NCBI GenBank assembly: GCA_001899805.1
Contig: MKWP01000014.1
Span: 558,001 to 622,000 of the forward strand
Source of the DNA: Lysobacterales bacterium 66-474
GTDB lineage: Bacteria; Pseudomonadota; Gammaproteobacteria; Xanthomonadales; Rhodanobacteraceae
Length of the DNA stretch: 64,000 nucleotides
Direction: 5' to 3'
The notes beneath the pieces are model-generated. The model was not told where the DNA came from. It did no database searches and saw only the letters and a program-made list of their open reading frames with translations. This document shows positions 31,895-55,630 of the stretch, in pieces. A program made the position numbers and the translations under genes. Position 1 is the stretch's first letter. Each line of letters begins with the position of its first letter.

Positions 31895-31899
31895 CCAGC

Positions 31900-32457: not shown

Positions 32458-32495
32458 TTGATTCGGCGCGAATTAGTTTTATAATTACAAAACTA
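32458..32495 (+). promoter_or_regulatory. arsR promoter with operator abutting the start codon
   Basis: TTGATT (32458-32463), 16 bases, then a perfect TATAAT (32480-32485). Inverted arms TAGTTTT (32474-32480) and AAAACTA (32489-32495) enclose the -10; the last A is the first base of the arsR ATG. The predicted transcript start is within about three bases of the ATG, so the mRNA should be leaderless. The dyad is the likely ArsR binding site. Confidence 0.75.
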
Positions 32496-32854
32496 TGAAA
32501 GAGCGTGAAGCCGTACGAGCACTGAACGCCTTGGCCCAGGACAGCCGGCTCGCAGCCTACCGGCTGTTGGTGCAGGCCGGTGATGCCGGTCTGGCTGTGG
32601 GCGAGATCGGCGACCGGCTGAAGGTGCCCGCTCCCACCTTGACGGCGCACCTCAACGTGTTGCGCCACGCCGGGCTGGTGCGCGACCAGCGCGAAGGCCG
32701 CGTGATCCGCTGCCGCGCCGACTACGCCCAGATGAACGCGCTGCTGGCGTTTCTCACCGAGAACTGTTGCGCGGGTGATGCCCGCACATGCGCACCGGTT
32801 GCGGCCTGTGCGCCTTCCGTCCGCAAGAAGCCTACGAGGAGTACCCAGCGATGA
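32495..32854 (+). CDS. arsR: ArsR/SmtB-family arsenic-responsive repressor
   Basis: A 119-residue winged-helix repressor: AVRALNALAQDSRLAAYRLL, LAVGEIGDRLKVPAPTLTAH and LNVLRHAGLVRDQREGRVIR. It lacks the ELCVC motif of the E. coli type. Instead the C-terminus has ENCCAGDARTC and further Cys residues, the arsenite site of the AfArsR type, where adjacent Cys near residue 95 pair with a third Cys. The ATG has no ribosome site because the -10 box is only about ten bases upstream. It overlaps arsI by ATGA and heads arsR-arsI-arsC-arsB. Confidence 0.92.
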   Translation: MKEREAVRALNALAQDSRLAAYRLLVQAGDAGLAVGEIGDRLKVPAPTLTAHLNVLRHAGLVRDQREGRVIRCRADYAQMNALLAFLTENCCAGDARTCAPVAACAPSVRKKPTRSTQR

Positions 32855-33321
32855 AGCGTTTCCATGTACACGTCCGTGTCACCGATCTCAACACCAGCAT
32901 CGGTTTCTACTCAACCCTGTTCGGCAGCGCGCCCACGGTGCGCAAGCCGGACTACGCGAAGTGGATGCTGGACGACCCGCGCATCAACTTCGCGATTTCC
33001 CAACGTGGCGGCACGGCAGGCGTCGACCACCTTGGTCTGCAGGCCGATGAACCCCAAGAACTCGACGAAATCGGCAAGCGCCTGAGCGCGGCAGACGCGG
33101 TGGTGCTGGCCGAGAAGGGGACGACCTGCTGCTATGCGCACTCCGACAAGTATTGGGCCGAAGATCCCCAAGGTGTACGTTGGGAAACGTTCCACACGCA
33201 TGGCGAGGCGACCACATATTCGTCGCCGGCGCACGCGAAGCCTGACGCCGCCTGTTGCGGTGCTGCAGCGGTGGTTGAGGCGAAACAAGGTGCTTGTTGC
33301 GGCGGCGGGACGTGCGGATGA
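32851..33321 (+). CDS. arsI: ArsI/CadI-family metal(loid) resistance protein (VOC fold)
   Basis: A 156-residue vicinal-oxygen-chelate protein: MKRFHVHVRVTDLNTSIGFY, KPDYAKWMLDDPRINFAISQ and GVDHLGLQADEP. The substrate Cys pair lies in GTTCCYAHSDKYW, and the metal-ligand Glu is in VRWETFHTHGE. ArsI proteins cleave the C-As bond of trivalent organoarsenicals; CadI relatives bind Cd. The tail is Cys-rich (ACCGAAA, GACCGGGTCG), likely an extra metal site. It overlaps arsR and arsC by four bases each. Family members with this Cys pair are usually ArsI, but the substrate is unproven here. Confidence 0.85.
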   Translation: MKRFHVHVRVTDLNTSIGFYSTLFGSAPTVRKPDYAKWMLDDPRINFAISQRGGTAGVDHLGLQADEPQELDEIGKRLSAADAVVLAEKGTTCCYAHSDKYWAEDPQGVRWETFHTHGEATTYSSPAHAKPDAACCGAAAVVEAKQGACCGGGTCG

Positions 33322-33725
33322 GCGCCGTGCCACGCGTGTTGTTCGTCTGCATCGAGAACGCCTGCCGCAGCCAGATGGCGGCAGGCTTCGCGCGCATGCA
33401 CGGCGCGGGTCATGTTGAAGCGTTCTCCGCAGGTTCCCGACCGGCTGCGTCCATCAATCCGCGTGCGGTCGCCTTCATGGCTGAACGCGGTTGCGATATT
33501 TCCGCGCAGGTTCCGCAGGCATTGGACGCGTTCACCGGGCAGGACTTCGATACGGTGGTGACAATGGGTTGCGGCGATGCCTGTCCATGGGTGCCGGCAC
33601 GCCATCGAGTGGATTGGTCGTTGCCCGACCCGAAATCCCTCCCGGACGACGAATTCCGTAGCGTGCGCGATGACATTGAACGGCGCGTGCGGCAATTGCT
33701 GGCCCAGTGGGGCGTACCCGCATGA
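33318..33725 (+). CDS. arsC: arsenate reductase ArsC (LMW-phosphatase type)
   Basis: A 135-residue enzyme with the P-loop VLFVCIENACRSQMAAGFAR (nucleophile Cys, CX5R). HVEAFSAGSRPAASINPRAV and the second Cys region TMGCGDACPWVPARHRVDW follow, then LPDPKSLPDD with the general-acid Asp. The Cys pair in GCGDAC fits thioredoxin-coupled disulfide relay. It reduces As(V) to As(III) for export by ArsB. The ATG overlaps the arsI stop (ATGA). It differs clearly from the second island copy at 54252, which has CTGNSARS in the loop. Confidence 0.9.
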   Translation: MSAVPRVLFVCIENACRSQMAAGFARMHGAGHVEAFSAGSRPAASINPRAVAFMAERGCDISAQVPQALDAFTGQDFDTVVTMGCGDACPWVPARHRVDWSLPDPKSLPDDEFRSVRDDIERRVRQLLAQWGVPA

Positions 33726-33841
33726 AAGCCGTCGTCGGTGTAGGGGTGTCCAGCCACCGGCCAGGCTGCGAATATGGCATGAGGGCGGCTCCCCGCCCGC
33801 ATTGCAACCGTTTGCCGCTGCGCTGAACAAGGGATCATCGT

Positions 33842-35161
33842 ATGTGGCTGGCACTGGCCATTTTCGTGGTCACTTTGACCTTGGTGATCTGGCAGCCCAA
33901 GGGGCTCGGCATCGGCTGGAGTGCGCTCGGTGGCGCTGTGGTCGCGCTGCTGCTGGGTGTCGTGAGTTGGGCCGATGTCGGCGTGGTGTGGCACATCGTG
34001 TGGGATGCCACGTTCACCTTCGTCGCCCTCATCGTCATTTCCCTCATTCTGGATGAAGCCGGATTCTTCGCCTGGGCCGCATTGCACGTCGCACGTTGGG
34101 GGAACGGTCGCGGACGCGTGCTCTTCCCGCTGATTGTGGTCTTGGGCGCGGTGATTGCTGCGCTTTTTGCCAACGATGGCGCGGCGCTGCTGCTGACGCC
34201 GATCGTGATCGCCATCCTGGTGCGGCTCGACTTCACTGCCGGCGCTACATTTGCCTTCATCATCGCGACCGGTTTCGTGGCCGATACAACCAGTCTGCCG
34301 CTCATCACGTCCAACCTCGTCAACATCGTCACCGCGAATTATTTCCAGATTGGCTTCGGCCAGTACGCGGCCGTGATGGTGCCGGTCGACATGGTCTCGC
34401 TGGCGGCCGTTCTCATGGTGCTCTGGATGGCGTTCCGGCACCGCATCCCAAAGTCCTATTCCATTGCAAAACTGGAGCCACCCCGATCCGCCATCAAGGA
34501 CTTGTTGGTCTTTCGCGCGGCCTTCCCGCTGCTCGCGGTGCTGCTCGTTGCGTATTTCGTCACGGCGCCGTTCGGCGTTCCGGTGTCCTTCGTCACCGGT
34601 GCGGCGGCGCTGATACTGGTGGCGATTGCCGGCCGCTGGTGGCGAAGTGGCCGCGGTGCGGTAGTGTCGGTAGGTTCGGTACTGCGGCACGCGCCGTGGC
34701 AAATCGTGCTGTTCTCACTCGGCATGTATGTGGTCGTCTACGGGCTGGGCAACGCCGGCCTGACCGCGCTGGGAGCTGGCGCGCTGCAGTGGTTAGCCGA
34801 GCGAGGCAATTTTGTTGCCACGATCGGCACGGGTTTTCTCTCTGCCGCAGTCGCCTCGGTGATGAACAACATGCCGTCCACCCTTGTCGGGGCACTAGCC
34901 ATCGACCACGCGCAGGTACCTGCGGTGACCCGCGCGTTGATGATCCACGCCAGCGTGATTGGCAACGACCTCGGTCCGAAGTTCACCCCGATCGGCAGCC
35001 TGGCCACATTGCTGTGGTTGCACGTCTTGGCCCGCAAGGGCCACAAGATCGGCTGGGGGCAGTACATGAAAATCGGTCTCTTGATCACCCCGCCGGTGTT
35101 ACTGGCGGCGCTCGTCGCACTGTTTTTTTGGTTGCCACTCGTTCCCACTTCTGGCGTTTAG
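33842..35161 (+). CDS. arsB: arsenite efflux transporter ArsB
   Basis: A 439-residue inner-membrane transporter of the ArsB/NhaD type with about 12 TM helices. Motifs include [68 protein letters not shown] and [20 protein letters not shown], all diagnostic of ArsB. It exports As(III)/Sb(III) by exchange with protons, or with ArsA elsewhere; no arsA is present here. AAGGGATC precedes the ATG at a normal distance. The 116 bases between arsC and arsB hold no gene. Its 3' end overlaps the convergent tnpS-type gene by four bases. Confidence 0.93.
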
Positions 35162-36351
35162 TGCTGTGACGCCTCACTGAAGGCGTGCGTTGTGCTTTCA
35201 TGCCGCGCATCTTCTTCCGCATGCAAGTAGATCGATGTGGTAGCGATTGAGCTATGCCGTAGATTGTGTTGGATGTGATGCAGTGGATTGCCGGCCTCGG
35301 CCTGGTGCGTCGCTGCGGTATGGCGTAACCAATGGGTCGACACCCGTCGCAACCGCGCAGCACGCGTCGAATCCGTCGGCGCCAAGACGTCCGCCACACG
35401 CCCCAAGGTGTCCTTGACCACCAGATAAACCCCTGTCGCGGTCAGCGGGGTGGTGTGGCCGGCGATGCCGAGGATCAACGGTCGCTCGCTGTCGCTGACC
35501 GGTGCAGCCGGCAAGCCATGAAACGTTCGATACCGTGCAAACTCCGCCATCAAGGCGTCGCTGACCGGCACGTCACCTTCCACGCCGCCTTTACCGGTCA
35601 CGTGCAGCCACCACCGGCCGCGTCGATGCAAGAAGTCGCGTTCGCAGGCCTGCGCCGCTTCCGAGGCGCGCAAGGCGGTTTCGTAGAGAAAGCGCAGCAC
35701 CCACCGCGCACGTTCGTAGCGCTGCTGCTCACGCGAATGAGTTCGCGGCCACTGCTCCACCAAGGCAAGCACGTCCTGCCACAGTGCGCGATCCAAGTAA
35801 CGCTCGATGACCCGGTGGGCGCGACGAGCACCACGTCCGTGGGGGTGTAGCGCGAACGGCGAACCGGCTAGATAGCCGGCACGCACGAGGTAATTGAACA
35901 GGCCGGCCAAGATGCCCAACGCTTGTCGCCGGCTGCGTTCCGACAACGGTCCCGCGAAAAGTCGCCGATGCGCACCATGCCGAGCCGCGGCTTCATCACA
36001 CCACATCGGCAGTGGCGCAGCTAAGAAGGCCTCGTAAGCCAAGACATCCTCGCGCGTCAGACTGGAGACCGCTTTGCCGCGGACCTGGGTCGCCCAGAGC
36101 AGGAGTCGTTCGGCTTCCTTACGGTAGCTGCGGAAGGTGTTCGGCGAGTCGCGGTATTCGGCCAGCCACAAGCCAATGGCGGCAACATCGTCGTCCGCAG
36201 CGATCTGCCGGGTGACGCCGGCGACAGCGCGATTGGTACCCGACGTCCCCGACAGTGCTGCGGGAAGGGTCTTGGGCACGACGGCCGTCAGGGCTTGGGC
36301 GTCCACGAGCTCTCCAGTGTTGCGGCTGCGCAAAACCGGAGCGTACACCAA
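35158..36351 (-). CDS. tnpS: tyrosine recombinase, TnpS-type cointegrate resolvase (copy A)
   Basis: A 397-residue tyrosine recombinase. The SAM-like N-terminal domain ([20 protein letters not shown]) is followed by the catalytic domain. There the Arg lies in [14 protein letters not shown], a Lys in [12 protein letters not shown], the His-x-x-Arg in [12 protein letters not shown], and the nucleophile Tyr in [19 protein letters not shown]. It is divergent from a coiled-coil partner gene (tnpT) across a 120-base AT-rich gap. This is the arrangement of TnpS/TnpT resolution modules in Tn4651/TnXax1-like Tn3-family transposons. Its 3' end meets arsB, so the ars operon looks like transposon cargo. 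Confidence 0.8.
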
Positions 36352-36471
36352 AATTACTTTTGATTATGGGAGTTATCGTAAGTTTTCAAGATAAATAATT
36401 ATACATATAACGTAATACAGTGATATATTCTAGTTGTACCCGCCGAAATCGACCTTCCCAGCGACTGGAAT
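36352..36471. promoter_or_regulatory. putative rst/res recombination region between tnpS and tnpT (A)
   Basis: The gap is strongly AT-rich (for example ATAAATAATTATACATATAA) in contrast to the GC-rich surroundings, and it carries both divergent promoters. In TnpS/TnpT transposons this is the cointegrate-resolution site. Imperfect GTTATCGTAA-like and TATAACGTAA-like repeats are visible, but no clean inverted repeat like that of copy B. Confidence 0.5.
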
Positions 36472-36477
36472 TTGCCC

Positions 36478-37467
36478 ATGAGCCGCGTTAGCGACACCCG
36501 CCAGCGTACTCGCGAAGCCGCCGCGGCCCTGGTGGCCGAGGGCAAACGACCGCACGAACTCACCGTCGATCTGATCTACGCCGCCATCCGACAGGGCAGC
36601 CGAACCACCATCAACGACGAACTGAAGCTGTGGAAAGACGAGCGGACCAAAGCCGATGCGCTCGGCACTGATCTACCGCCGGCGATCGCCGACGCGATGC
36701 GTTCGCTGTGGGTGGCGGCGGTGGAACAAGGTGAGCAGGTCTTCGGCGAGCAACGACAAGCACTGGAATCCGATTTGGCGACGCTACAACGCACACACGA
36801 TGTCGTCGTCGTCGAACGAGATGCAGCGCTGTCCACTGTCCAGCAACTGCAACAGGAGATCGAGCGGCTCAGGGAGCAAAACGCCCAAGTGCAATTGCAA
36901 CTCAGCCAAGAATCCGAGGCCAAGCGTAATGCACTGGGCCAGATCCAGGCCCTGCAACGCGAAATCGCCACGGTTCGTGCCGACATGACGCAACAGTTGG
37001 AGGAGGCGCGAGACGTTCAGCAGCGGCTGACTTCGGAGTTCCAGTCCACAATCGCGGCCCGGGATACGGCCTTTCAATCCGAGCGAGATAAGGCGAACGA
37101 ACGTGTGGAAGTGGCCCAAACTCGCATGCTGCAAGAAACCGATGCGGCACGCGAAGGGCTGCGACAGGCCGAACAGCAGCTTGCCAAGGCCCGGAAACGC
37201 AATGAAGAGCAGCAAGCGAACCTCACGGAACTCCGCCTCGAAGTTGCGCACCATCAACGCGAACTGGCCAAAAGCGAGACTCAAGTGAAATCCTTGGCCG
37301 ACGTCAAAATTGAACGCGATAAATTGACGCTTGAACTCGCCACGTTGCACGGACAGTTGGCAGGAATGACCAAGGCCGTCCAGTCCGCCGAAGCCAGGGC
37401 GATAGCCGCTGAGTCTCGGCTGGCTGCAGCGCAAACGCCCGCTCGGAAACGGCGACGTACCGGTTGA
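36478..37467 (+). CDS. tnpT: TnpT-like coiled-coil DNA-binding protein (copy A)
   Basis: A 329-residue protein. The first about 110 residues form a KfrA-type DNA-binding domain (RVSDTRQRTREAAAALVAEG, TINDELKLWKDER), and the rest is an almost uninterrupted Gln/Glu/Ala-rich coiled coil up to a basic tail, ARKRRRTG. TnpT of Tn4651-type transposons binds the resolution site and helps TnpS. The ATG at 36478 was preferred to a TTG at 36472. It is divergent from tnpS, and its stop is only a few bases from the inner edge of a transposon terminus (37471-37581). Confidence 0.75.
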   Translation: MSRVSDTRQRTREAAAALVAEGKRPHELTVDLIYAAIRQGSRTTINDELKLWKDERTKADALGTDLPPAIADAMRSLWVAAVEQGEQVFGEQRQALESDLATLQRTHDVVVVERDAALSTVQQLQQEIERLREQNAQVQLQLSQESEAKRNALGQIQALQREIATVRADMTQQLEEARDVQQRLTSEFQSTIAARDTAFQSERDKANERVEVAQTRMLQETDAAREGLRQAEQQLAKARKRNEEQQANLTELRLEVAHHQRELAKSETQVKSLADVKIERDKLTLELATLHGQLAGMTKAVQSAEARAIAAESRLAAAQTPARKRRRTG

Positions 37468-37470
37468 GGT

Positions 37471-37581
37471 ATGCCCAAATTTTGCCTGTATCCGGGGCCG
37501 TTTTTATCCGCCAAGCCGTTGATGCAACGAACAAATTCAACTTCTATAGGGCATTTTTACATGTATCTCGGCTGCACCCCC
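37471..37581 (-). repeat. terminal region of a Tn3-family transposon (end A)
   Basis: Read inward on the minus strand from 37581, the sequence begins GGGGGTGCAGCCGAGATACA, a Tn3-type tip, and ends with GGATACAGGCAAAATTTGGG near the tnpT stop. The same inner motif, with small changes, occurs at 50358-50383 beside the other tnpT. Outside 37581 the DNA turns abruptly into a TonB-receptor gene. The full length of the inverted repeat is unknown; long repeats of about 90 bases occur in TnXax1-like elements. Confidence 0.6.
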
Positions 37582-38099: not shown

Positions 38100-38258
38100 T
38101 CATTGCTCTTCCTGATCCCGATTGGTGGTAATCGAGGTAGTGACAGGGAAGCTACGGTGAGCCGCCATGTAGTATGTAACACCTTGGCTACAATGGTATT
38201 TTAGAATCAGTTACCGCTAACATGCGCTTTCCGGTCGATCCACCCGAAAGGATCATCC

Positions 38259-41219
38259 ATGAAGCGAAATTGGAGCGAGCCAGAGCTCGACGAGACATGG
38301 CTGCTGTCGCCCTCGGAGCTGGCGACGCTGACGAAGAAAACCGCTGCGAACCGCCTCGGGTTTGCACTCCAGCTCAAAACGCTTCCCTTCGAAGGCCGAT
38401 TTTTTAGCACGGCCGGTGAACTATCACCAATTGTTGTCCGTTTTGTCGCCGAGCAAATCGGCGTGCCCGCCAGAATGCTTAGCGACTATGCAACTGACGG
38501 GCGCAGCGCGGAGCGCGACCGAGCGGACATCCGCAAGCATTTGGGGTGGCGTCAGGCGACGGAAAAAGATAACGCGGACATGTCGTCGTGGCTGCGTAGT
38601 GAGGTCCTTTCGGGTGCGCCAGAACCCAAGCACCTGAACGATATTGCGATCAATTGGTACCGCGAGCGCCGCATCGAAACCCCTGCCCGTATCAATTGCG
38701 ACCGCTTCATCCGTGCAGCCGTGAGCGCGTTCGACAACGAGCTGTACGCATCGATAGCGACACATCTCTCTCCGGATACACGTCAGTCGATCGACGCGCT
38801 GCTGACCTTGTCAGAAAAAGGCGATGACGACAATGCAGGGAGCGATGATGCTCTGTCGCTCTCGACGCTCAAAGCGGACCCCGGGCGCCCGGGTGTCGAT
38901 AGCATTGCGAAGGAGATTCAGAAACTTCAGGGCATCGATCGGCTGCGCCTGCCGCCTGGACTTTTGGATCACGTCACACCGAAGATCATCGACCGGTTTT
39001 GTCGGCGGGTGGCGACGGAGCCGCCGAGCGAGCTGCGACTGCGTGTCGAGCCTGTGCGGTACACCTTGGCGGCGGCTTATTGTTGGCAACGCCGCCGCCA
39101 GGTAATCGATGGCTTGGTGGATCTGTTTATTCAGACCGTACACCACATCGGCGTCCGAGCAGAGAACAAAGTCGAACGACAACTGCTCAATGACTTCCGG
39201 CGCGTACGAGGCAAGGCAACCGTCCTCTTCAAACTTGCTGAGGCTGCCGTAGAACACCCGCAAGGTGTAATCCGGGACGTTTTGTTTCCTGTAGTCGGTG
39301 AACAGACATTGCGCGATTTGGTCAAGGAGTACAAGTCCAACGGGCCGCTGTTCAACACGGTCGTACACACCATCATGCGAGCGTCTTACAGCAACCACTA
39401 CCGGCGCGCCCTGCCCGAATTACTCGACGCCCTTACGTTTCGCTGCAACAACGAAGCGTATCGCCCTGTGATGCGCGCTTTGGAGGTGGTACAGGCAACC
39501 CGCCATCAGCGATCGCAATATCACGCGCTGACTAACGATATTCCAGTCGACGGGGTGATCAAACCGAAGTGGCTCGACATCGTGATCGAAGCGGACGCGA
39601 AGGGCCACCGCCGCATCAACCGTATCAACTACGAAATCTGTGTCCTGCAGGCCTTGCGTGAAGGCCTGCGCAGCAAGGAAATCTGGGTCGAAGGCGCCGA
39701 TCGCTATCGCAACCCAGACGAAGACTTGCCTGGGGATTTCCGGGAGCAACGTGCGGCGTATTACGCCGCATTGAATCTCACTGACGATCCGAAGCCCTAC
39801 ATCGAGAAATTAAAAAAAGCGATGTTCGATGGCTTGCGTGCCTTGGATGCAGGGATGCCTAGCAACGCCAGGGTTCGCGTGTTGCAACGTGGTCCGCACC
39901 GACTCAGCGTTAGCCCACTTGATGAGCAGCCCGAGCCGACAAACCTGGCCGCGCTCAAGGCAGAGATCCTCGATCGATGGGCCGGGACGGGTTTGTTGGA
40001 CGTCTTCAAAGAAGCCGAGTTGCGGATTGGCTTCACGGCGGCCTTTCCGACGACAGCTTCACGCGCTGCCATTGACCCCGATGAGCTTCGCCGAAGGTTG
40101 TTGCTGTGTTTGTATGGTCTCGGAACCAATGCGGGCCTTCGCCGGATTCTGACGAGCGACATGGGCGCTACGTACAAGGAGCTGTTGTACACCAAGCGCC
40201 GTTTCGTTCTCAAAGCATCATTGCGCAATGCCATTGCGCAGGTCGTCAATGCCACCTTCGAAGCCCGCCAATCTGACGTGTGGGGCGAAGGCACGACAGC
40301 ATGCGCATCCGACTCCAAGAAATTCGGGGCTTGGGATCAGAACCTCATGACCGAGTGGCACATTCGTTACGGTGGTCGTGGCGTGATGATCTATTGGCAC
40401 GTGGAAAAGCGGTCAACCTGCATCCACTCGCAACTGAAGCGGTGCTCGTCATCGGAAGTCGCAGCCATGATTGAGGGCGTGCTTCGCCACTGTACGGACA
40501 TGACGGTGGAGAAGAACTACGTCGATACGCATGGTCAAAGCGAGGTAGCGTTCGCGTTCTGCAGCCTACTTGGATTTCAACTGATGCCACGGCTCAAGGG
40601 GATTCATAGGCAGAAATTGTACCTGCCCGAAACCGGTTGCGGCGATCAATTTCTGAACTTGGGGCCAATCCTGACCAAGCCGATCAACTGGAGTTTGATC
40701 GAGCAGCAGTACGACGAGATGGTGAAGTTCGCGACGGCGCTTCGATTAGGTACGGCCGATTCCGAGTCGATTCTGCGCCGGTTTACTCGCAATGTTCCGC
40801 AGCATCCAACCTACGCGGCGCTCGCGGAACTGGGGCGTGCCGTGAAAACCATCTTCTTGTGCGATTACCTTCGCGACGAAGCGGTGCGTCGGGAAATCCA
40901 TGAGGGATTGAACGTCGTGGAAAACTGGAACTCTGCCAACGGATTCATCTTCTACGGCAAAGGCGGCGAAGTCGCTACGAACCGCTTGGAGGACCAGGAG
41001 CTTTCCGTGCTGTCGCTACACTTGCTGCAGCAGTGCTTGGTCTATGTCAATACGCTCATGATCCAGAACGTTCTGGCGGACAAACGTTGGCAACATCGCA
41101 TGACCGCGGTGGATCTCCGGGCGCTGTGCCCTTTGATTTACGCGCATATCAACCCCTATGGGCGATTCGACTTGGACATGAACACCCGGTTGGATATTGA
41201 CGAGGCGCAAGCGGCCTGA
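38259..41219 (+). CDS. tnpA: Tn3-family transposase TnpA
   Basis: A 986-residue DDE transposase, full length for the family. It starts [20 protein letters not shown] and has DUF4158-type N-terminal sequence. Catalytic residues are recognisable: Asp685 in [11 protein letters not shown], Asp756 in [13 protein letters not shown] and Glu888 in [26 protein letters not shown] follows, as usual. It cuts and joins the terminal inverted repeats to give cointegrates, which TnpS/TnpT would resolve. Base composition is visibly less GC-rich than in the metal genes. No clear 38-base inverted repeat with a GGGG tip is seen just after the stop codon, so the element may be truncated on that side. Confidence 0.93.
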
Positions 41220-41281
41220 ACAAATGGTTTGGCACCAAGGGGATCCATATGCAGGAAATGCTTCTATCCGTCTATACGTGC

Positions 41282-41821
41282 TCATCGCGCGGCGGAATCT
41301 TTTCCGAAAACTTTGGACTGTGCTCGCCAAAGTTCCGGCGTGATATTCGAAGCCGCCAAGTAAAGCGGTAGCCGATGATCTCCGAACATCCTGCGGAGAC
41401 GCTTGAGATCCCGTCCCATGAACAGCCACAAGTGCTCTCGGTCAAACTGAAACCTCGATCGGAACGGAAACGTCGGTGCGTCGTTTTTGCTGCCTTCCAG
41501 CAAATCGAAGCCGTCGAGAATCAGGAGCGTCGGCCAAGGATGCTTGTCGTCGTTCGTGCGGTCGTTGATGTCTCGCAACCGCGCCGTAATGCTATCGAGT
41601 CGCGCCGCGGGAGCTGGCCTTAGATCGACGACCTCCGTCTTTACCCGCCGCTTGCTTGCGGCTCTTGCAATCGCGAAGCGACAACGGTCTGCGCATTCAT
41701 CGTTTGGGCCCGCCAAGTACGCCGGCGAGCGTAGGCTTGGAAAGAGCCTGTGCACGAATGCTGCAGCAACTTGATCTGCGAGTTCCCGGACCGATGGAGC
41801 ATCATCTCCCATAGCTCGCAC
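41282..41821 (-). CDS. hypothetical protein downstream of tnpA
   Basis: A 179-residue cytoplasmic protein without signal or membrane segments. Residues about 85-110 read HPWPTLLILDGFDLLEGS, which looks like a Walker-B-like beta strand (hydrophobics then Asp), and the C-terminal part is basic (GRDLKRLRRMFGDHR). I recognise no family. It is convergent with tnpA (62-base gap) and lies in the same direction as the SseB-like gene. It could be a truncated ATPase-like protein or an orphan cargo gene. The 147 bases upstream, to 41969, show nothing clear. Confidence 0.4.
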   Translation of the reverse strand: MRAMGDDAPSVRELADQVAAAFVHRLFPSLRSPAYLAGPNDECADRCRFAIARAASKRRVKTEVVDLRPAPAARLDSITARLRDINDRTNDDKHPWPTLLILDGFDLLEGSKNDAPTFPFRSRFQFDREHLWLFMGRDLKRLRRMFGDHRLPLYLAASNITPELWRAQSKVFGKDSAAR

Positions 41822-41968
41822 ACTCTGTATACGTTATCGATAAGGCGCTGGTACTGAATCACTACCCCGCAACATTGCGCGCACGCGCCGTCTCGTCACT
41901 TTGGCGGTACGCTTGCGGTTGCCAGTTTGCGCATCGCTGCTGCGACTGAGCAATGACCAAGTCTGGCG

Positions 41969-42724: not shown

Positions 42725-42796
42725 TGCCAACCTCGTGGCCGCTCGGCTTGCGTCGGCATCTGCTTTGCTCGCTCAGTACGTCGCGCAACGCGTTGG

Positions 42797-45230: not shown

Positions 45231-45343
45231 CTCCCGATCGCGGCGCTTGGCGCCGCTCGTCGCGTTTGCCTGTGAGCGCTGCTCGCATCAAACGCGCATC
45301 TTGATCGCATGCGGCGCGCCATCGCGCCGTTCGGGAGTTCAAC

Positions 45344-48339: not shown

Positions 48340-48354
48340 AGGGGAACCCTCCAC

Positions 48355-49443: not shown

Positions 49444-49480
49444 TCACGCACCCTTCAAACGCAAAGAGGAGAAGCCCATC

Positions 49481-49861
49481 ATGAAACATCGCAATTCCAT
49501 TCTGGTCGCCACCCTTGTCGTCGCCGCTACGGCCCTGCCTTCGATGGCGCAACAATCGTCGGGCATGCAAGACATGCCCATGCAGAACATGCCGATGCAC
49601 AACATGCCCATGAAAGACATGATGCAGTCGGCCAATGCCGAAGGGGTTGGTGTCGTGCAGGCCGTTAACCCGGATCAGGGAACCATCACGGTCAAGCATC
49701 AGGCGATCGAATCGATACACTGGCCCGCGATGACCATGACCTTCAAGGCCGCCAAACCGGAGCTGCTGAAAGGCGTGGAAGTCGGCGAACACATTCGCTT
49801 TGGACTGCATACCCAAGGCATGCACGGCACGGTGACCTGGATCAAGCCGGTTTCGCCGTGA
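49481..49861 (+). CDS. CusF-domain copper chaperone (second copy)
   Basis: A 126-residue secreted protein: signal peptide (ILVATLVVAATALPSMAQ), a short Met-rich repeat (MPMQNMPMHNMPMKDMMQ) and a CusF domain with IHWPAMTMTF ligands. It is shorter than the copy at 24114 because the Met/Lys-rich linker is reduced. No cusCBA genes follow it here, so it may serve the cop proteins or the Cus pump in trans. AGAGGAG lies upstream of the ATG. Confidence 0.88.
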   Translation: MKHRNSILVATLVVAATALPSMAQQSSGMQDMPMQNMPMHNMPMKDMMQSANAEGVGVVQAVNPDQGTITVKHQAIESIHWPAMTMTFKAAKPELLKGVEVGEHIRFGLHTQGMHGTVTWIKPVSP

Positions 49862-49946
49862 CCGCCGCTACGTCCATTCCGTTCGATAAGGGGCGGCGAT
49901 GCAGGCGCGCCGCGTTTCGCCTGCTTCAAGGAAGAGGAAAACAGCC

Positions 49947-50300
49947 ATGACTCACCATACAGCGGAGCACCGCTCGCAAGCGATGAATCAGTGCATCGAG
50001 GACTGCATCCAATGCGAGCGCGTTTGCCTCGAAACTACCAACTACTGCCTCGGTGAAGGCGGAGACCACGCCGACGCCGCTCACATCGCGTTGCTGACCG
50101 CGTGTGCAGACATTTGCGGGACCAGTGCGCGCACGATGCTGCGGGGCGCTGCGGTCCATACCGCGGTCTGCAGGGCCTGTGCAGAGGTCTGCCGCGAATG
50201 CGCGGCATCGTGCGATGGATTCGATGATGCCGAGATGGAACGCTGCGTCCAGGCGTGCCGGCGTTGTGCCGAAAGCTGCGACGCGATGTCAGCCCGATAG
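49947..50300 (+). CDS. four-helix-bundle copper storage protein (Csp/DUF326)
   Basis: A 117-residue Cys-rich helical protein without a signal peptide. Cys residues recur along helices: CIEDCIQCERVCLETTNYCL, LLTACADICGTSARTML, AVCRACAEVCRECAASC and CVQACRRCAESCD. This is the pattern of the Csp family, which stores many Cu(I) ions inside a four-helix bundle. The lack of a signal suggests a cytoplasmic Csp3-like store. It ends the second copper operon and has a relative at 63322. Confidence 0.88.
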   Translation: MTHHTAEHRSQAMNQCIEDCIQCERVCLETTNYCLGEGGDHADAAHIALLTACADICGTSARTMLRGAAVHTAVCRACAEVCRECAASCDGFDDAEMERCVQACRRCAESCDAMSAR

Positions 50301-50334
50301 TCTGCTCTGGAGGTGCTCGGCGTCTCTTGGCGCC

Positions 50335-50383
50335 GGGCAGCCGATGTAGAGGGTAAACCCGGATTCGGCAAAAATTTGGACAT
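50335..50383 (+). repeat. candidate terminal repeat of a Tn3-family transposon (end B)
   Basis: Reading inward on the plus strand: GGGCAGCCGATGTAGAGGGT and then CCCGGATTCGGCAAAAATTT. It shares GCAGCCGA at the tip and the inner motif with end A at 37471-37581, in opposite orientation. It lies 35 bases after the Csp stop and 86 bases before the tnpT stop, mirroring end A. The exact outer base is unsure. Confidence 0.5.
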
Positions 50384-50468
50384 TTGAATCGTAAGTATCT
50401 GTAATGCATAAACTTACAGTCTGCGGCTCAGCGCATCACTTGTTTCCACGGACGCAATCCAAGAACGT

Positions 50469-51395
50469 TCAATTCTGGCGCCGTTTGGCATGATCCGTGT
50501 GCGCGTCGGAATCTTCCGGTAATCGTAAGCGCGTCTTGCCGGCGCGCCCGACCCGCCGTGCGGCGGACTTGCCGCGTCCGGCGCTCGGCAGTTTGAGCTT
50601 CAGGGCTTCGGCCACGCCCCGTTGATGGGCGGCTTCCCGTTCCGCCGCACGCAAGGAACGCGTGAGTTCCGTGATCGTCCGCTGCAGCGTTTGGGTTTCT
50701 TGCTGGTGGCGCTTCCGGGCGTCGGCCAGCTCGGCGCGAGCGGCCTTGAGGTCCGTGCGTGCCCGATCGACGTGAGCGTGGGCACGGTCCTCAACGATCC
50801 GGATGTGTTCCTCGCGTGCACTTCGCTCCTTCGCCGACTTCTCCTCAATTGTCCGGATTTCGTCGCGAAGTTTGGTGCAGGCGGTTTCCAGCGCCTGATT
50901 TTGGGCGACGAGACGGGGGCGTTCCTCGGCGTGCTCCTTGCCTTCGTCCTCCAGCCGGTCCACCAAGCGGCGCAGCGTGGCCACCTCTACCGCAGCGCGG
51001 CGAGCGGCTTCTTCGGCCTGTTGCGTGGCTGCCTGCGCCGTCGCTAGCAGGGCCCCTTGTTCGGCCTCGCGCGCATCGAGGGCCGTCCGGCTTTGCTGAA
51101 GCGCTTCGCGCTCCGCATGGATTTCCTGTTGCATATGCTCGCGGGCGTGCTGCAGCGCTTGGCCCCACAGGTTGGTCATGGCGTGGCCAACGTCGTCCGG
51201 AAGATCAGGGAGCGTATTCAGTTCCTGCAGCCGAGTGGCCAGCCCCTGCCGCCAGACATCCAACATGCGGGTGACCGTGTTGGGTGAGCCGGTCCCGAGC
51301 TTGGCGCGAACCTTTTCCACCGTCACGCGCTCACCGGCCGCAGTGATCGCATCGGCGGTGGTGTCCACTTGCTCTTGAGTGATTCCATGCGGCAT
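50469..51395 (-). CDS. tnpT: TnpT-like coiled-coil DNA-binding protein (copy B)
   Basis: A 308-residue protein with an N-terminal KfrA-type DNA-binding domain (GITQEQVDTTADAITAAGER, SPNTVTRMLDVWRQGLAT). A long Arg/Glu/Ala/Gln coiled coil follows (residues about 80-265), then a basic tail (GKSAARRVGRAGKTRLRLP). Its organisation is the same as copy A at 36478 but the sequence is quite different. It is divergent from tnpS copy B and presumably binds the site between them. The stop codon side faces transposon end B. Confidence 0.75.
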   Translation of the reverse strand: MPHGITQEQVDTTADAITAAGERVTVEKVRAKLGTGSPNTVTRMLDVWRQGLATRLQELNTLPDLPDDVGHAMTNLWGQALQHAREHMQQEIHAEREALQQSRTALDAREAEQGALLATAQAATQQAEEAARRAAVEVATLRRLVDRLEDEGKEHAEERPRLVAQNQALETACTKLRDEIRTIEEKSAKERSAREEHIRIVEDRAHAHVDRARTDLKAARAELADARKRHQQETQTLQRTITELTRSLRAAEREAAHQRGVAEALKLKLPSAGRGKSAARRVGRAGKTRLRLPEDSDAHTDHAKRRQN

Positions 51396-51502
51396 TTTGG
51401 GTCTCCGCTTTCGTTACCCTGCCCTGTTGTATTCGTACCGACGATAATGGATAGTTATCGTCGATACAATCGATTTATCATTATATATATTACATTATAC
51501 AT
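51396..51502. promoter_or_regulatory. putative rst/res recombination site between tnpT and tnpS (B)
   Basis: A perfect nine-base inverted repeat CGACGATAA (51439-51447) and TTATCGTCG (51455-51463) flanks a seven-base spacer, TGGATAG. This is the layout of a tyrosine-recombinase core site. It is followed by a very AT-rich run up to the tnpS ATG. Position and structure fit the TnpS crossover site. Confidence 0.7.
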
Positions 51503-52606
51503 ATGAAGAAAAATACGCTGATCGTGACCCAGGAAGCTTTGGCCCGGTTGCGGCCCGAGGATCTGGCCGCGTCGGCGGCGGAAGCGGTACGTGAAATCCT
51601 GGCTGAAGCGGCCTCGGCGAATACCGCCCGCAGCTACGCCAGTGCACTGCGCTACTGGGCCGCCTGGTACCAGGGCCGTTACGGCACCCCGATCACGGTG
51701 CCGGTGTCCGAGGCCGCGGTGATGCAGTTCATCGTGGACCATGTGGCGCGGCGTTCGAAAGCCGGTCTGAAATGGGAACTGCCACAGCAGCTCGACGCGC
51801 TGCTGGTCGTCACCAAGATCAAGCACAAACCGGGGCCCCTGAAGCTCAGCACGGTGGTCCACCGCGTTGCCGTCTTGTCCGAAGCCCATCAGCTGAAAAA
51901 GCTTGCAAATCCGTGCGAGCAACCGGCGGTGCGGCACCTGCTGGCGCGGGCCCGGCGCGCCGCGATCAAGCGCGGCGAACGACCGGCGAAGAAGACCGCC
52001 ATCACCAAGCCGGAACTCGAGGCCATGATCGCGACCTGCGATGCCTCCCTCGAGGGCTTGCGCGACCGCGCCCTGCTGTATTTTGCGTTCGCCAGTGGCG
52101 GCCGGCGACGCAGCGAAGTCGCGGCCGCCGATCTGCATGACTTGCACGCGTTGCCGGAAGGCGGCTACGTCTATCGGCTCGAACACAGCAAGACCCAACA
52201 GGCTGGCGTGACCGCACATTCCACGCCAGACAAGCCGGTATTGGGCGTGGCGGCCGAGGCGCTGGCCGCTTGGCTGACGGTCAGCGGTCTCAAAGAGGGG
52301 GCAATGTTCAGGCGGATATGGAAGACTCGCGTCGGTCCGGCGCTCTCCCCCGCTGCCATCGGCGCGATCGTGCAACGCAGAGCGATCATGGCGAAACTCG
52401 AGGGAAACTTCGGCGGCCACAGCCTGCGCTCAGGATTTGTTACAGAGGGGGCGCGGCAAGGTATCGCGCTGCCCGCGTTGATGGCGATGACGGAGCACCA
52501 CTCGGTCAGCAGCGTGATCGGGTACTTCCAAGCCGGGGGTGCGGCCAAGAACCCGGCGGCGCACTTGCTGGACACCCGAGATCTTCACGAGCCGCCTGAA
52601 AACTGA
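51503..52606 (+). CDS. tnpS: tyrosine recombinase, TnpS-type cointegrate resolvase (copy B)
   Basis: A 367-residue tyrosine recombinase. N-terminal domain: ASANTARSYASALRYWAAWY. Catalytic pieces: Arg in FASGGRRRSEVAAADL, Lys in RLEHSKTQQAGV, His-x-x-Arg in GGHSLRSGFVTEG, and SVSSVIGYFQAGGA with the Tyr. It is closer to the Tn4651 TnpS type than copy A. Together with tnpT and the inverted repeat between them it forms a resolution module. The ars operon to its right points toward it, mirroring copy A. Confidence 0.82.
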   Translation: MKKNTLIVTQEALARLRPEDLAASAAEAVREILAEAASANTARSYASALRYWAAWYQGRYGTPITVPVSEAAVMQFIVDHVARRSKAGLKWELPQQLDALLVVTKIKHKPGPLKLSTVVHRVAVLSEAHQLKKLANPCEQPAVRHLLARARRAAIKRGERPAKKTAITKPELEAMIATCDASLEGLRDRALLYFAFASGGRRRSEVAAADLHDLHALPEGGYVYRLEHSKTQQAGVTAHSTPDKPVLGVAAEALAAWLTVSGLKEGAMFRRIWKTRVGPALSPAAIGAIVQRRAIMAKLEGNFGGHSLRSGFVTEGARQGIALPALMAMTEHHSVSSVIGYFQAGGAAKNPAAHLLDTRDLHEPPEN

Positions 52607-52689
52607 TCCGGCCCGAACACCAGCGGACCACCCAAAGTGGGCCCGACACCCAGGTTCTTCTGCGCGGCCCGGCAATGCCGTGCCGATCG

Positions 52690-52900
52690 CCGCGCGAATG
52701 AACGCGGTTGGCCAGATCCCGCTGGCTGCTACGGCCGCGCTGCTGTTGAACCTCGAGGCGGTGCTGACCGCACTGTTGGCATGGAGTATCGCGAGACTGC
52801 GAACCGCTGGATCGTGTTTGGCTTCGCGCTGATCGTAGTCGGCGCAGTACCACCTGCGTGGAGTAGTTTCGGCGCGTACCGGTGCGTACTTTCGTACCCG
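52690..52900 (+). pseudogene. relic: EamA/DMT-family transporter C-terminal fragment
   Basis: In one frame the DNA gives IPLAATAALLLNLEAVLTAL with LAW, and in the next frame EYRETANRWIVFGFALIVVG. Together these are the last two helices of an EamA-type drug/metabolite exporter, broken by a frameshift near 52785 and lacking the rest. The whole 314-base gap 52607-52920 holds nothing else. Confidence 0.6.
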
Positions 52901-52920
52901 TGATGATTGAACTGCATGGC

Positions 52921-54231
52921 TCACAACCGGGTTACGATCGGCAGCCACGCGGCCAGCGCGAGCAGAGTGACCAATAGCACCGGCGGCGTCAGTACCAAGC
53001 CGACCTTCATGTACTGGCCCCAGCCGATACGATGACCCTTGGCCGCCAGGACATGCAGCCACAGCAGCGTCGCGAGGCTGCCAATGGGGGTGAACTTGGG
53101 CCCCAGGTCATTGCCCACGACGTTCGCGAACACCATCAAGTGATGGGTCAGGGGCGGAACGTTCGCATGGCTGATTGCCAATGCACCGACCAGCGTCGAG
53201 GGCATGTTGTTCATGACGGCTGCGACGCAGGCTGCGAGAAAGCCGGTGCCCACGGTTGCGACTGCCACATTCTGACGGCCGAGCGCCTCCAACAGCGTTG
53301 CGCCGTAGCGGGTGAGCCCGGCTTCGCCCAACCCATAAACCACCACGTACATGCCGAGTGAGAACAGCACGATCTGCCAGGGCGCATGTCGGATGACTCT
53401 GGCAACGGACACGACGGCGCCGTGTCCGCGATGCCACCAGCGCCCCGCGATGGCCATGAGGACCAATGCCGCCGCGCCGGTGATGAAGGAGACGGGTACG
53501 TGCAAGGGCGCCAGCACGAAATACGCCACAAGCAGGATGACCAGCAGCGGCAACGCCGCGCGGAACACCTGATGATCGACGATGGCGCTGGCTGGCGCGT
53601 CCAGTTCGGCCACGTCGTAGCGCGTCGGAATCTTCCGGCCGAACGCGAACCACAATACCGCCAGCGTGGCCGCGATCGACACTAGGTCGACCGGCACCAT
53701 GATGGCGGCGTAATGGTCGAACGATACTTCGAAATAGTTGGCGCTGACGATGTTGACGAGGTTCGAGATCACCAGCGGCAGGCTGGCCGTGTCGGCGATG
53801 AAGCCCGTGGCCAATACGAACGCGAGTGCCGCCGAGGGGGGGAACTTCAATCGCAGCAGAATGGCGATCACGATCGGAGTAAGCAGCAATGCCGCGCCAT
53901 CATTGGCGAAGAACGCGGCAATGGCGGCCCCAAGCAGGACCACCAGCGGGAACAATCGCCGGCCCCGTCCGCCACCCCAGCGTGCGACGTGCAGCGCAGC
54001 CCACGCGAAAAAGCCGGCCTCGTCCAGGATCAACGAAATGATGATAAGTGCGACGAAGGTAAAGGTGGCGTCCCATACGATGTGCCACACCAATGCGACA
54101 TCGGCGAACGTGACAACGCCGAAGATCAGTGCCACGGCGGCACCGCCCAAGGCGCTCCAGCCAATGCCGAGTTTCTTCGGCTGCCAAATCACGAGCGCAA
54201 GCGTGACGATGAAGATCGTGAGTGCGAGCAT
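52921..54231 (-). CDS. arsB: arsenite efflux transporter ArsB (second copy)
   Basis: A 436-residue ArsB with the same motifs as the copy at 33842: [72 protein letters not shown] and [20 protein letters not shown]. The ATG at 54231 places the first helix at the N-terminus. It is 20 bases after arsC in the operon arsR-arsI-arsC-arsB on the minus strand. Its 3' end faces the EamA relic and tnpS B. Confidence 0.93.
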   Translation of the reverse strand: MLALTIFIVTLALVIWQPKKLGIGWSALGGAAVALIFGVVTFADVALVWHIVWDATFTFVALIIISLILDEAGFFAWAALHVARWGGGRGRRLFPLVVLLGAAIAAFFANDGAALLLTPIVIAILLRLKFPPSAALAFVLATGFIADTASLPLVISNLVNIVSANYFEVSFDHYAAIMVPVDLVSIAATLAVLWFAFGRKIPTRYDVAELDAPASAIVDHQVFRAALPLLVILLVAYFVLAPLHVPVSFITGAAALVLMAIAGRWWHRGHGAVVSVARVIRHAPWQIVLFSLGMYVVVYGLGEAGLTRYGATLLEALGRQNVAVATVGTGFLAACVAAVMNNMPSTLVGALAISHANVPPLTHHLMVFANVVGNDLGPKFTPIGSLATLLWLHVLAAKGHRIGWGQYMKVGLVLTPPVLLVTLLALAAWLPIVTRL

Positions 54232-54251
54232 GAATGCGAACAGACGCTGGA

Positions 54252-54782
54252 TCAGTCGGGCTGGACCAGCGTGGGCGCTGACTCGGCGCCAATCCGCGCA
54301 ATTGCCTGCAACGCACGGCACGCTTCTGGACCAACAAGCTGGTCGGCCGGAAGCGCCACCATCGCCTCGACGCGCTCGCGCAGGAGTTCCCATGCATCGC
54401 GGTACGCCGCACGTTGGGTTGCTTCATCCCCAACCACGTGCGCCGGGTCGGGCACGCCCCAGTGCGCCGTGACGGGCGAGCCAAACCAAACCGGACACGT
54501 TTCTCCCGCGGCGTTGTCGCAGACAGTGATTACGAAGTTCATGGTCGGCGCGCCTTTCTTGGCAAATTCATCCCAGGATTTGCTGTACAGGCGGTCAGCA
54601 GGATAGCCCAGGCTCGTTGCAAGCTCCGCAGCCAGCGGCTGGACCCGTCCCGCAGGGTGGCTGCCCGCACTGAAGGCCTCGAAGTGGCCATGGCCGAGCA
54701 CGTTCAGCAGCGCTTCGGCCATGATGCTGCGTGCCGAATTGCCAGTGCACAGGAACAGCACGCGATAGGGTTTCGGGTTCAT
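54252..54782 (-). CDS. arsC: arsenate reductase ArsC (LMW-phosphatase type, second form)
   Basis: A 176-residue enzyme with P-loop VLFLCTGNSARSIMAEALLN, FEAFSAGSHPAGRVQPLAAE and the second Cys block VITVCDNAAGETCPVWFG. PVTAHWGVPDPAHVVGDEAT carries the Asp. It belongs to the CTGNSARS subfamily, about 40 residues longer at the C-terminus than ArsC at 33318, and is therefore not a recent copy of it. It reduces As(V) to As(III). It overlaps arsI by TGATG. Confidence 0.9.
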   Translation of the reverse strand: MNPKPYRVLFLCTGNSARSIMAEALLNVLGHGHFEAFSAGSHPAGRVQPLAAELATSLGYPADRLYSKSWDEFAKKGAPTMNFVITVCDNAAGETCPVWFGSPVTAHWGVPDPAHVVGDEATQRAAYRDAWELLRERVEAMVALPADQLVGPEACRALQAIARIGAESAPTLVQPD

Positions 54783-55255
54783 CACGCGCCCGTCCCCGCT
54801 GCCCGCGCTTTCGGCCCGCAGCAGGAGGATTGCGGGCCACAACACGCGTCGGACTTGGCGGCTTCCGCGTGTGGCGCAGGCGCCGAATAGATCGTGGCCT
54901 CGCCGTGGGTGTGGAAGGTTTCCCACCGCACGCCTTGAGGATCTTCGGCCCAATACTTGTCCGAGTGCGCGTAGCAGCAGGTGGTGCCCTGTTCGGCCAG
55001 GGCGACCGCATCGGCCGCCATCAGCCGTTCACCGAAGGCTTTCAGTTCGGCGCCGTCCTCCGCCTGCAAGCCGAGATGATCCACACCCGGAGCGCGATCG
55101 CGTTGCGAAATCGCGAAGTTGACGCGGGGGTCTTCCAGCATCCACTTGGCGTAATCAGACTTGTGCACGGTCGGCGTACTGCCGAACAGGGTGGAATAGA
55201 AGCGGATGCTGGCATCCAGGTCATTCACGTTGACGTGTACATGAAAGCGCTTCAT
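54782..55255 (-). CDS. arsI: ArsI/CadI-family metal(loid) resistance protein (second copy)
   Basis: A 157-residue VOC protein highly similar to the one at 32851: MKRFHVHVNVNDLDASIRFY, HKSDYAKWMLEDPRVNFAIS, GVDHLGLQAEDG, GTTCCYAHSDKYWAEDPQG and VRWETFHTHGEATIYS. The Cys-rich tail (ACCGPQSSCCGPKA) is kept. The Cys pair and Glu support organoarsenical C-As lyase (ArsI) activity; Cd binding is the alternative. It overlaps arsR by ATGA. Confidence 0.85.
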   Translation of the reverse strand: MKRFHVHVNVNDLDASIRFYSTLFGSTPTVHKSDYAKWMLEDPRVNFAISQRDRAPGVDHLGLQAEDGAELKAFGERLMAADAVALAEQGTTCCYAHSDKYWAEDPQGVRWETFHTHGEATIYSAPAPHAEAAKSDACCGPQSSCCGPKARAAGTGA

Positions 55256-55593
55256 CGCGAGGTTCTCTGTTTGGGTTGGGGTGTGCACACGGGTGCGCAG
55301 GAAGAGGTGTCGTTGCCGCAACAGTTCTCGGTCAGGAAGCCAAGCAACATGTTCATGCGCGCGTAATCGGCGCGGCAGCGGATCGAGCGGCCTTCGCGCA
55401 CATCGCGTACGAGGCCGGCGTGTCGCAGCACGTTGAGATGGCTGGTGAGCGTGGGCGCCGGTAGCTTGAGGCGGTCGCTAATTTCGCCCACCGCCAGCCC
55501 TTCGGGTCCGGCCTGCACCAGCAGGCGGTACGCCGCCAGGCGGCTGTCATGGGCAAGCGCCTTCAGGACTTCAACAGCAGTTATGTGTTTCAT
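55252..55593 (-). CDS. arsR: ArsR/SmtB-family repressor (second copy)
   Basis: A 113-residue repressor: TAVEVLKALAHDSRLAAYRL, LAVGEISDRLKLPAPTLTSH, LNVLRHAGLVRDVREGRSIR and the C-terminal ENCCGNDTSSCAPVC arsenite site. It closely matches the copy at 32495. It starts directly at the edge of its operator with no ribosome site, so a leaderless mRNA is expected. It heads the second ars operon. Confidence 0.92.
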   Translation of the reverse strand: MKHITAVEVLKALAHDSRLAAYRLLVQAGPEGLAVGEISDRLKLPAPTLTSHLNVLRHAGLVRDVREGRSIRCRADYARMNMLLGFLTENCCGNDTSSCAPVCTPQPKQRTSR

Positions 55594-55630
55594 AGTTCAT
55601 GAACTATAAAAGTAAATTTCTCACTGTCAA
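55592..55630 (-). promoter_or_regulatory. second arsR promoter with palindromic operator at the start codon
   Basis: Minus strand: TTGACA (55630-55625), 16 bases, TATAGT (55608-55603). A perfect palindrome ATAGTTCATGAACTAT (55592-55607) covers the space from the -10 box to the first bases of the ATG. It is the same layout as at 32458-32495. Confidence 0.75.

What the first reader, a model, noticed from the sequence alone, without database searches (positions are those of the whole stretch)
32458..55630. Mirror-image ars plus tnpS/tnpT modules flank tnpA and a copper operon
From the left: arsR-arsI-arsC-arsB, tnpS, tnpT, transposon end A. From the right, in opposite orientation: arsR-arsI-arsC-arsB, tnpS, tnpT, transposon end B. 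The pairing and order are the same, yet both ArsC and both TnpS/TnpT copies belong to different sequence types, so this is not a recent inverted duplication. Either two related but separate transposons landed tail to tail, or this cargo order is conserved in a family of ars transposons. The segment between them (tnpA, SseB-like genes, copper operon) could move as a composite.
Basis: partly seen in the sequence, partly recalled or inferred. Interest (0 to 1): 0.8.

Follow-up and report, generated by a model that had tools for sequence, protein, structure and literature searches.

The report
Three stacked metal-resistance transposons
The two mirror-image arsenic arms are the facing ends of two different complete jumping elements, with a third big one (carrying the copper genes) between them, so the symmetry looks like stacking and convergence rather than a duplication or one composite element; this is ordinary in kind but unusually clean.

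Summary
The gene order is real, but its boundaries are wrong. The window lies in a 112-kb chromosomal island of three complete Tn3-family transposons, each with terminal repeats and a 5-bp target duplication. TnA (47.4 kb, CAGTA) runs off the left and ends at 37580. TnC (64.1 kb, TAATC) starts at 38134 and owns the middle tnpA and the copper operon. TnB (21.4 kb, ATGTA) starts at 50349, nested in TnC. Gapless empty sites exist for TnA (2 relatives) and TnC (4). So two separate transposons lie tail to tail. ars beside tnpS is not a family trait: 0 of 45 near-complete tnpS relatives have it within the 10 kb or less held, though two degraded loci in the genus pair tnpS/tnpT fragments with ars. 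arsR, arsI, arsB of the arms have dS near 1.47; arsC was swapped. TnA and TnB pair Tn4651-like transposases with foreign resolvases; TnC pairs a Tn4651-like resolvase with a foreign transposase. TnC's cargo separates tnpS from tnpT, as already published for TnXocp1. New members of known kinds.

The parts
1..37580 (.). TnA, in-window part of a 47,368-bp transposon (C14:548213-595580; window = C14:558001-622000). Its tnpA lies outside, C14:548317-551277, minus strand
   Evidence: Repeats 33 of 39 identical, duplication CAGTA on both sides, empty site in two relatives
32495..35161 (+). Arm A arsR (32495-32854), arsI (32851-33321), arsC (33318-33725; best but sub-cut-off match to the glutaredoxin type), arsB (33842-35161)
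35158..36351 (-). tnpS type A, tyrosine recombinase
   Evidence: Phage_integrase 6e-19; 69-79% relatives in the family and 70-74% on Rhodanobacter plasmids
36352..36471 (.). rst-like region A; GATTAT, TTATC and TAACGTAAT blocks kept
   Evidence: 10 aligned intergenic regions, read by eye
36472..37467 (+). tnpT type A, KfrA_N DNA-binding helper
37468..37510 (-).
   Evidence: comparable repeat 75 nt behind tnpT in L115
37542..37580 (-). True right terminal repeat of TnA
   Evidence: similar repeat 114 nt behind tnpT in a relative, L118
37581..38133 (.). Host DNA: TSD CAGTA at 37581-37585, 5' part of a TonB-dependent receptor gene split by TnA, TSD TAATC at 38129-38133
   Evidence: Receptor remainder at L005:8342-10132; gapless empty sites. 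Receptor named by eye from the translation
38134..64000 (.). TnC, in-window part of a 64,129-bp transposon (C14:596134-660262), TSD TAATC, with TnB nested inside
   Evidence: Repeats 36 of 46 identical; empty site in G014, G015, G006, G012
38259..41219 (+). tnpA of TnC, 986 aa, 24% to Tn4651 TnpA
43548..44534 (-). tnpS of TnC, 53% to Tn4651 TnpS; its tnpT partner is 56.5 kb away at C14:659003-660049
44799..50300 (+). Copper cargo of TnC: copL-like, copA, copB, cytochrome c plus DUF4440, CusF-like, and a weak (sub-cut-off) Csp1-like protein
50344..50348 (.). Target duplication ATGTA of TnB, left copy
50349..64000 (.). TnB, in-window part of a 21,414-bp transposon (C14:608349-629762); its tnpA lies outside, C14:626565-629645, minus strand
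   Evidence: Repeats 28 of 38 identical to each other, 28 and 30 of 38 to Tn4651; TSD ATGTA both sides
50469..51395 (-). tnpT type B, KfrA_N helper
51396..51502 (.). rst-like region B with palindrome CGACGATAA-N7-TTATCGTCG
   Evidence: GATAA and TTATC kept in 11 aligned regions, read by eye
51503..52606 (+). tnpS type B, tyrosine recombinase
52921..55593 (-). Arm B arsB (52921 to about 54231-54252), arsC (54252-54782; best but sub-cut-off match to the thioredoxin type), arsI (54782-55255), arsR (55252-55593)
   Evidence: 87% identical operon at C14:183382-186037

Best explanation
Three independent replicative (Tn3-family) transpositions built the island. TnA jumped into a TonB-receptor gene. 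TnC jumped into host DNA that is now 553 bp from TnA's right end, and TnB jumped into TnC's cargo. TnA and TnB share the Tn4651 plan (tnpT, resolution site and tnpS at one end, cargo next, tnpA at the far end), so when two of them land facing each other their tnpS/tnpT ends look mirrored. The ars operon that abuts tnpS in both was acquired separately, most likely from the arsenic-resistance operons common in this genus. Shown: boundaries, duplications, empty sites (TnA, TnC), divergence, lack of ars beside the tnpS relatives examined. Inferred: the transposition mechanism, the source of the ars operons, and that the resolvases work.
For: Repeats with 5-bp duplications CAGTA, TAATC, ATGTA. Gapless empty sites for TnA in 2 of 2 and TnC in 4 of 4 relatives examined. 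The genome has three Tn3-family transposases by a TnpA_C search at E 0.001: TnpA_C itself and two at 23-25%; TnpA_A and TnpA_B are 46% identical. Tn4651 TnpA is 57% to TnpA_B and 45.5% to TnpA_A, and TnB has Tn4651's order of tnpT, tnpS, cargo and tnpA. ars divergence: dS 1.46-1.48 for arsR, arsI, arsB; arsC 36.7%. ArsB of arm B is 94% to another copy in the same genome; ArsB of arm A is 84% to G001:C22 and 76-86% in two pieces to G001:C12; the arms are 73.7% to each other. 0 of 45 tnpS relatives near ars.
Against: TnB's empty site could not be tested: I found no relative with the same copper cargo without TnB. TnB's two repeats match at only 28 of 38 positions. Two degraded loci in the genus join ars to this kind of transposon: G002:C57, a tnpS type-A fragment and an arsB fragment convergent and 6.7 kb apart; and C14:178467-186078, a tnpT type-B fragment in the same locus as an ars operon. 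So the ars link may be a little older than these two copies. TnC's left flank matches relatives for only about 34 bp before the gene order differs.
Confidence: 0.93

Rival explanations
1. The ars-tnpS-tnpT order is the conserved cargo order of a family of ars transposons, of which both arms are diverged members.
For: Same order and orientation in both arms; equal divergence of arsR, arsI, arsB; two degraded loci in the genus pair tnpS or tnpT fragments with ars genes. On five Xanthomonas plasmids an arsB lies about 5 kb from a type-C tnpT relative (coordinates), and arsenic genes on tnpS/tnpT transposons are in print (passages of PMC4619425 and PMC10667641).
Against: 0 of 45 tnpS relatives (15 type A, 30 type B; 44 with at least 8.2 kb of cargo side held) have ArsB/R/I/C there; 6 of 15 type-A copies have copA within 4.3 kb instead. 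0 of 2725 and 0 of 2688 matching plasmid records keep the junction. tnpS, tnpT and tnpA are far more diverged than arsRIB.
Confidence: 0.04
2. A composite transposon: the two arms mobilise everything between them.
For: Two related elements flank the copper operon in opposite orientation.
Against: The arms' repeats and target duplications differ; each element and TnC has its own duplication, and TnA and TnC have separate empty sites.
Confidence: 0.01
3. One ancestral element duplicated and inverted long ago in place.
For: Mirror symmetry.
Against: Different transposases, repeats, tnpS, tnpT and arsC types with unequal divergence; arm B's closest ars relative found is another locus in the genome, not arm A.
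Confidence: 0.01

Closest known systems
Tn4651 of plasmid pWW0 (Tn3 family, Tn4651 subgroup)
   Same: TnB has the same layout and related transposase (57%) and repeats (28 and 30 of 38); TnA's transposase is 45.5% and its repeats 21-22 of 38; TnC has related TnpS (53%) and TnpT (44%). The element was located in pWW0 by its annotation and repeats; its name there is recalled and from papers
   Different: Resolvases of TnA and TnB are not detectably or only weakly related to Tn4651's (TnpS_B 28%); TnC's transposase is only 24%. Cargo here is metal resistance
TnXocp1 / TnXop1 / TnPsd1 / TnSml1 (Niu et al. 2015, PMC4619425; section 19 and passages read)
   Same: tnpA near tnpS, passenger genes between tnpS and tnpT, rst palindromes kept, metal (some arsenic) cargo; TnC fits this plan
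   Different: TnC is 64 kb against 18.8 kb for TnXocp1 and carries a nested TnB; no sequence comparison with TnXocp1 itself was made
Rhodanobacter denitrificans plasmid transposons (NZ_CP088981, NZ_CP088926)
   Same: Type A and type B tnpS/tnpT ends also face each other, about 4.4 and 2.6 kb apart
   Different: Cargo there is mer and RND efflux, no ars seen in the listed features; their transposases are 20-26% to those here

Membership tests
Tn4651 subgroup (TnA and TnB) | Transposase closer to Tn4651 than to other subgroups | tested here: met
   57.2% and 45.5% to Tn4651 against 26% to Tn21; only these two reference subgroups were compared
Tn4651 subgroup (TnA and TnB) | Terminal repeats like Tn4651's and a 5-bp duplication | tested here: met
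   28-30 of 38 for TnB, 21-22 of 38 for TnA (weaker); CAGTA and ATGTA
Tn4651 subgroup (TnA and TnB) | Divergent adjacent tnpS and tnpT with a palindromic site between | tested here: met
   definition from PMC7157771 passages. No exact palindrome of 7 bp or more in the type-A region
Tn4651 subgroup (TnA and TnB) | TnpS and TnpT homologous to Tn4651's | tested here: not met
   TnpS_A, TnpT_A, TnpT_B no BLASTP hit at 1e-3; TnpS_B 28%
Tn4651 subgroup (TnA and TnB) | Transposition and cointegrate resolution activity | not testable with these tools
   Bench test
TnXocp1-like (TnC) | tnpS near tnpA, cargo between tnpS and tnpT | tested here: met
   tnpA 596259-599216, tnpS 601551-602534, tnpT 659003; tnpS and tnpA converge here
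TnXocp1-like (TnC) | rst palindromes retained | tested here: met
   Beside tnpT in TnC; in the 17 contigs compared the accessory palindrome pattern is in 16 and the core motif in 17
TnXocp1-like (TnC) | Companion genes for a DNA recombination protein and helicase II | not tested
   Named in PMC4619425; not looked for
Conserved ars-tnpS-tnpT family | ars beside tnpS in other members | tested here: not met
   0 of 45; 0 of 2725 and 0 of 2688; two degraded loci are the nearest approach
Composite transposon | Like flanking elements and one duplication round the whole | tested here: not met
   CAGTA at TnA's outer end, ATGTA at TnB's; different repeats

The most novel reading that the evidence does not exclude
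The resolution module (tnpT, rst, tnpS) is a swappable tail: rst-by-rst recombination between unrelated Tn3-family elements keeps re-pairing transposases with resolvases. This island shows the reciprocal swap in one place, and types A and B are two uncharacterised two-part resolvase classes. The relic of a TnB-type end just inside TnA's true end would be the scar of such a tail exchange.
Probability: 0.3. Interest if true: 0.6.

Novelty: new member of a known kind. Interest (0 to 1): 0.36.

Why it matters
It gives a 112-kb chromosomal record, with duplications and (for two of three) empty sites, of how large metal-resistance transposons stack in one place, and shows that a striking mirror symmetry can arise from shared architecture plus convergent cargo. 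The re-pairing of transposases and resolvases makes the modular-exchange idea for Tn3-family elements testable with a defined set of parts.

Tried and rejected
Conserved ars transposon family, composite transposon and ancient inverted duplication were rejected for the reasons given under rivals. A preference for tail-to-tail landing was considered: among five chromosomal contigs where I saw both a type-A and a type-B tnpS hit of high similarity or as fragments (G000, G054, G067, G048, G078), two are tail to tail, two face the other way and one is direct (read by eye from the capped listings), plus the R. denitrificans plasmid arrangement tail to tail. That is not distinguishable from chance. 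The split tnpS/tnpT architecture looked new until PMC4619425 was found to describe it. A scan for GGGG..TAAG-type termini hit none of the true ends. An exact palindrome search in the type-A intergenic region found nothing of 7 bp or more. Megablast of the whole region against plasmids gave only short 60-80% matches in 8 records.
Full report
What is there. The window is C14:558001-622000 of a 3.73-Mb genome in 16 contigs. The family is taken to be Rhodanobacteraceae, because a same-genus genome (G002) has a contig of the same length and content as one of Rhodanobacteraceae bacterium FW021_bin.3, and two family members match Dyella lipolytica and Oleiagrimonas sp. C23AA contigs by length; the genus was not named.

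Left element. A DNA search of the tnpT-downstream stretch in 16 genomes of the genus (own included) showed chromosomal sequence beginning near window 37580 and a 39-base match at C14:548213-548251 in the same genome. These are the two terminal repeats of TnA, 33 of 39 identical, flanked by CAGTA on both sides. TnA is 47,368 bp and splits a TonB-receptor gene whose remainder lies beyond its left end (the receptor is named by eye). In the two relatives examined, G014 and G015, the flanks meet without a gap. Its transposase is at C14:548317-551277, outside the window.

It is not the terminus. One related tail (L115) carries such a repeat 75 nt behind tnpT, while a closer relative with a 79% identical transposase (L118) has the TnA-type repeat 114 nt behind tnpT, and no inner one was seen there by eye. 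I read it as a relic of an older end; how it came there is open.

Right element. TnB runs from C14:608349 to 629762 (21,414 bp), with repeats 28 of 38 identical and ATGTA on both sides. Its plan (tnpT, tnpS, cargo, tnpA read inwards from the far end) is that of the element in pWW0, and its transposase is 57% identical to that one.

The middle. The tnpA at 38259-41219 belongs to a third transposon, TnC: repeats 36 of 46 identical at C14:596134 and 660262, duplication TAATC, 64,129 bp. Empty sites are gapless over 84 positions in the four relatives examined, G014, G015, G006 and G012. TnC carries the copper genes and TnB. Its resolvase is the closest relative here of Tn4651's: TnpS 53% (window 43548-44534) and TnpT 44% (C14:659003-660049), 56.5 kb apart.

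Split tnpS and tnpT. A KfrA_N scan was run on 18 chosen genomes (own included) with a type-C tnpS match. In 16 of them, on 17 contigs, both type-C genes lie on one contig; in two (G029, G070) they do not. The genes are divergent in 17 of 17, adjacent in one (G084:C34, 224 bp) and 2.7 to 78 kb apart in 16. Upstream of tnpT the accessory palindrome pattern is found in 16 of 17 (G151's is imperfect by eye) and the core motif in 17; none of the 16 split tnpS genes has that palindrome within 260 nt. Of these 17 elements tested for ends, matching terminal repeats came out clearly in 9 (G000, G156, G084:C13, G222, G048, G078, G063, G053, G203). Equal 5-bp duplications, read from the printed flanks, are seen in five (G000, G156, G222, G063, G053); I see none for G084:C13, G048 and G078, and G203 lies at a contig edge. 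The other eight gave no convincing repeat in the stretches searched. G161 differs from the plan: its TnC-type repeats enclose tnpA, tnpT and tnpS in another order and show no equal duplication. So large distances in elements without paired repeats (for example G151, G031) may include unrelated DNA. The architecture was described by Niu et al. 2015 as TnXocp1, so it is known; PMC7157771 gives the adjacent form (passages).

Module exchange. TnpA_A-type transposases (79-81%) with TnA-type repeats occur with type-A resolvase (TnA; L118, repeat seen at the tnpT end) and with split type-C resolvase (G156, G084:C13, G222); type-C resolvase occurs with several unrelated transposase types. In this island TnA and TnB join Tn4651-like transposases to resolvases with little or no detectable likeness to Tn4651's, and TnC does the reverse. 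That resolution-site recombination can build hybrid Tn3-family elements is proposed in PMC7157771 (passages).

Why both arms carry ars. The scan was given 62 loci, drawn from the better matches and other stretches fetched so far (weaker or partial tnpS matches of those calls were not all fetched); three were dropped as duplicates. Of these, 45 tnpS copies passed 50% identity and 60% coverage (some with inner stops, and some nearly identical to each other), and none had ArsB/R/I/C within up to 10 kb on the cargo side (44 of 45 with at least 8.2 kb held; one with 1 kb). Six of 15 type-A copies had copA within 4.3 kb. Other arsenic genes such as acr3 were not sought. In plasmids 0 of 2725 and 0 of 2688 matching records covered 80% of the junction. 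arsR, arsI and arsB of the arms are 73.5-74.7% identical with dS 1.46-1.48, near saturation; arsC is 36.7% and best fits another reductase type, though below the curated cut-offs. Arm B's operon is 87% identical to another at C14:183382-186037 (its ArsB 94%); arm A's nearest full operon found is in G001, 76%, with ArsB copies there at 84% and, in two pieces, 76-86%. A further partial operon lies on C4. So ars operons are common in this genus and each arm has closer kin elsewhere than its mirror image.

Results against. Fragments that fell below the coverage limit do join ars to such tails: G002:C57 (also seen as L162) has a type-A tnpS fragment and an arsB fragment convergent 6.7 kb apart, with metal-transport-like cargo between; the own-genome locus L210 has a type-B tnpT fragment and rearranged TnB-like cargo with the 87% ars operon. 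On type-C elements ars is not rare: on five Xanthomonas plasmids (NZ_CP116673, NZ_CP103843, NZ_CP018732, NZ_CP018726, NZ_CP059994) an arsB lies about 5 kb from a type-C tnpT relative (coordinates), and papers report arsenic genes on tnpS/tnpT transposons (passages of PMC4619425 and PMC10667641). An ars-carrying lineage of type-A or type-B transposons in this genus may therefore be somewhat older than the two arms, though the larger relatives examined lack it.

Literature. Searches for tnpS/tnpT with arsenic, Tn4651, Rhodanobacter with metal resistance, TnXocp1 and arsB listed no paper that, from its title or the passages I read, describes this island or a mirrored pair of ars-tnpS junctions. 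Most listed papers were seen only as listings, and only open-licence PubMed Central papers were searched.

Noticed in passing
C14:654745-658634 (L007:12745-16634), beyond the window: TnC carries a type II CBASS-like defence set (patatin-type phospholipase, DncV-like cyclase, E1-E2 protein) beside its tnpT end; a CBASS-type phospholipase also follows tnpS in two R. denitrificans plasmids.
   Followed up: partly
C14:177188-186078 (L210:1188-10078): Second, rearranged copy of TnB-like cargo: an MFS-like gene, tnpT type-B fragment, metal ATPase, and an ars operon 87% identical to arm B.
   Followed up: partly
L005:13320-14453, L006:16942-18000, window 52539-52832: EamA-type transporter genes lie in TnA and TnC, and a similar-looking fragment lies next to arsB in TnB (by eye).
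   Followed up: no
window 41969-42730: SseB-domain gene beside the TnC transposase; SseB-like matches also lie near Tn3-family genes in G002, G161, G063 and G031.
   Followed up: no
window 37581-38133 against G014 and G015: The TonB-receptor gene lies about 11 and 16 kb away from the TnC target in these relatives, so host gene order was rearranged here as well.
   Followed up: no
L056:12986-15049 (R. thiooxydans plasmid NZ_CP088924): Two different type-A tnpT genes (58% identical) in tandem before one tnpS, a likely hybrid or nested tail.
   Followed up: no
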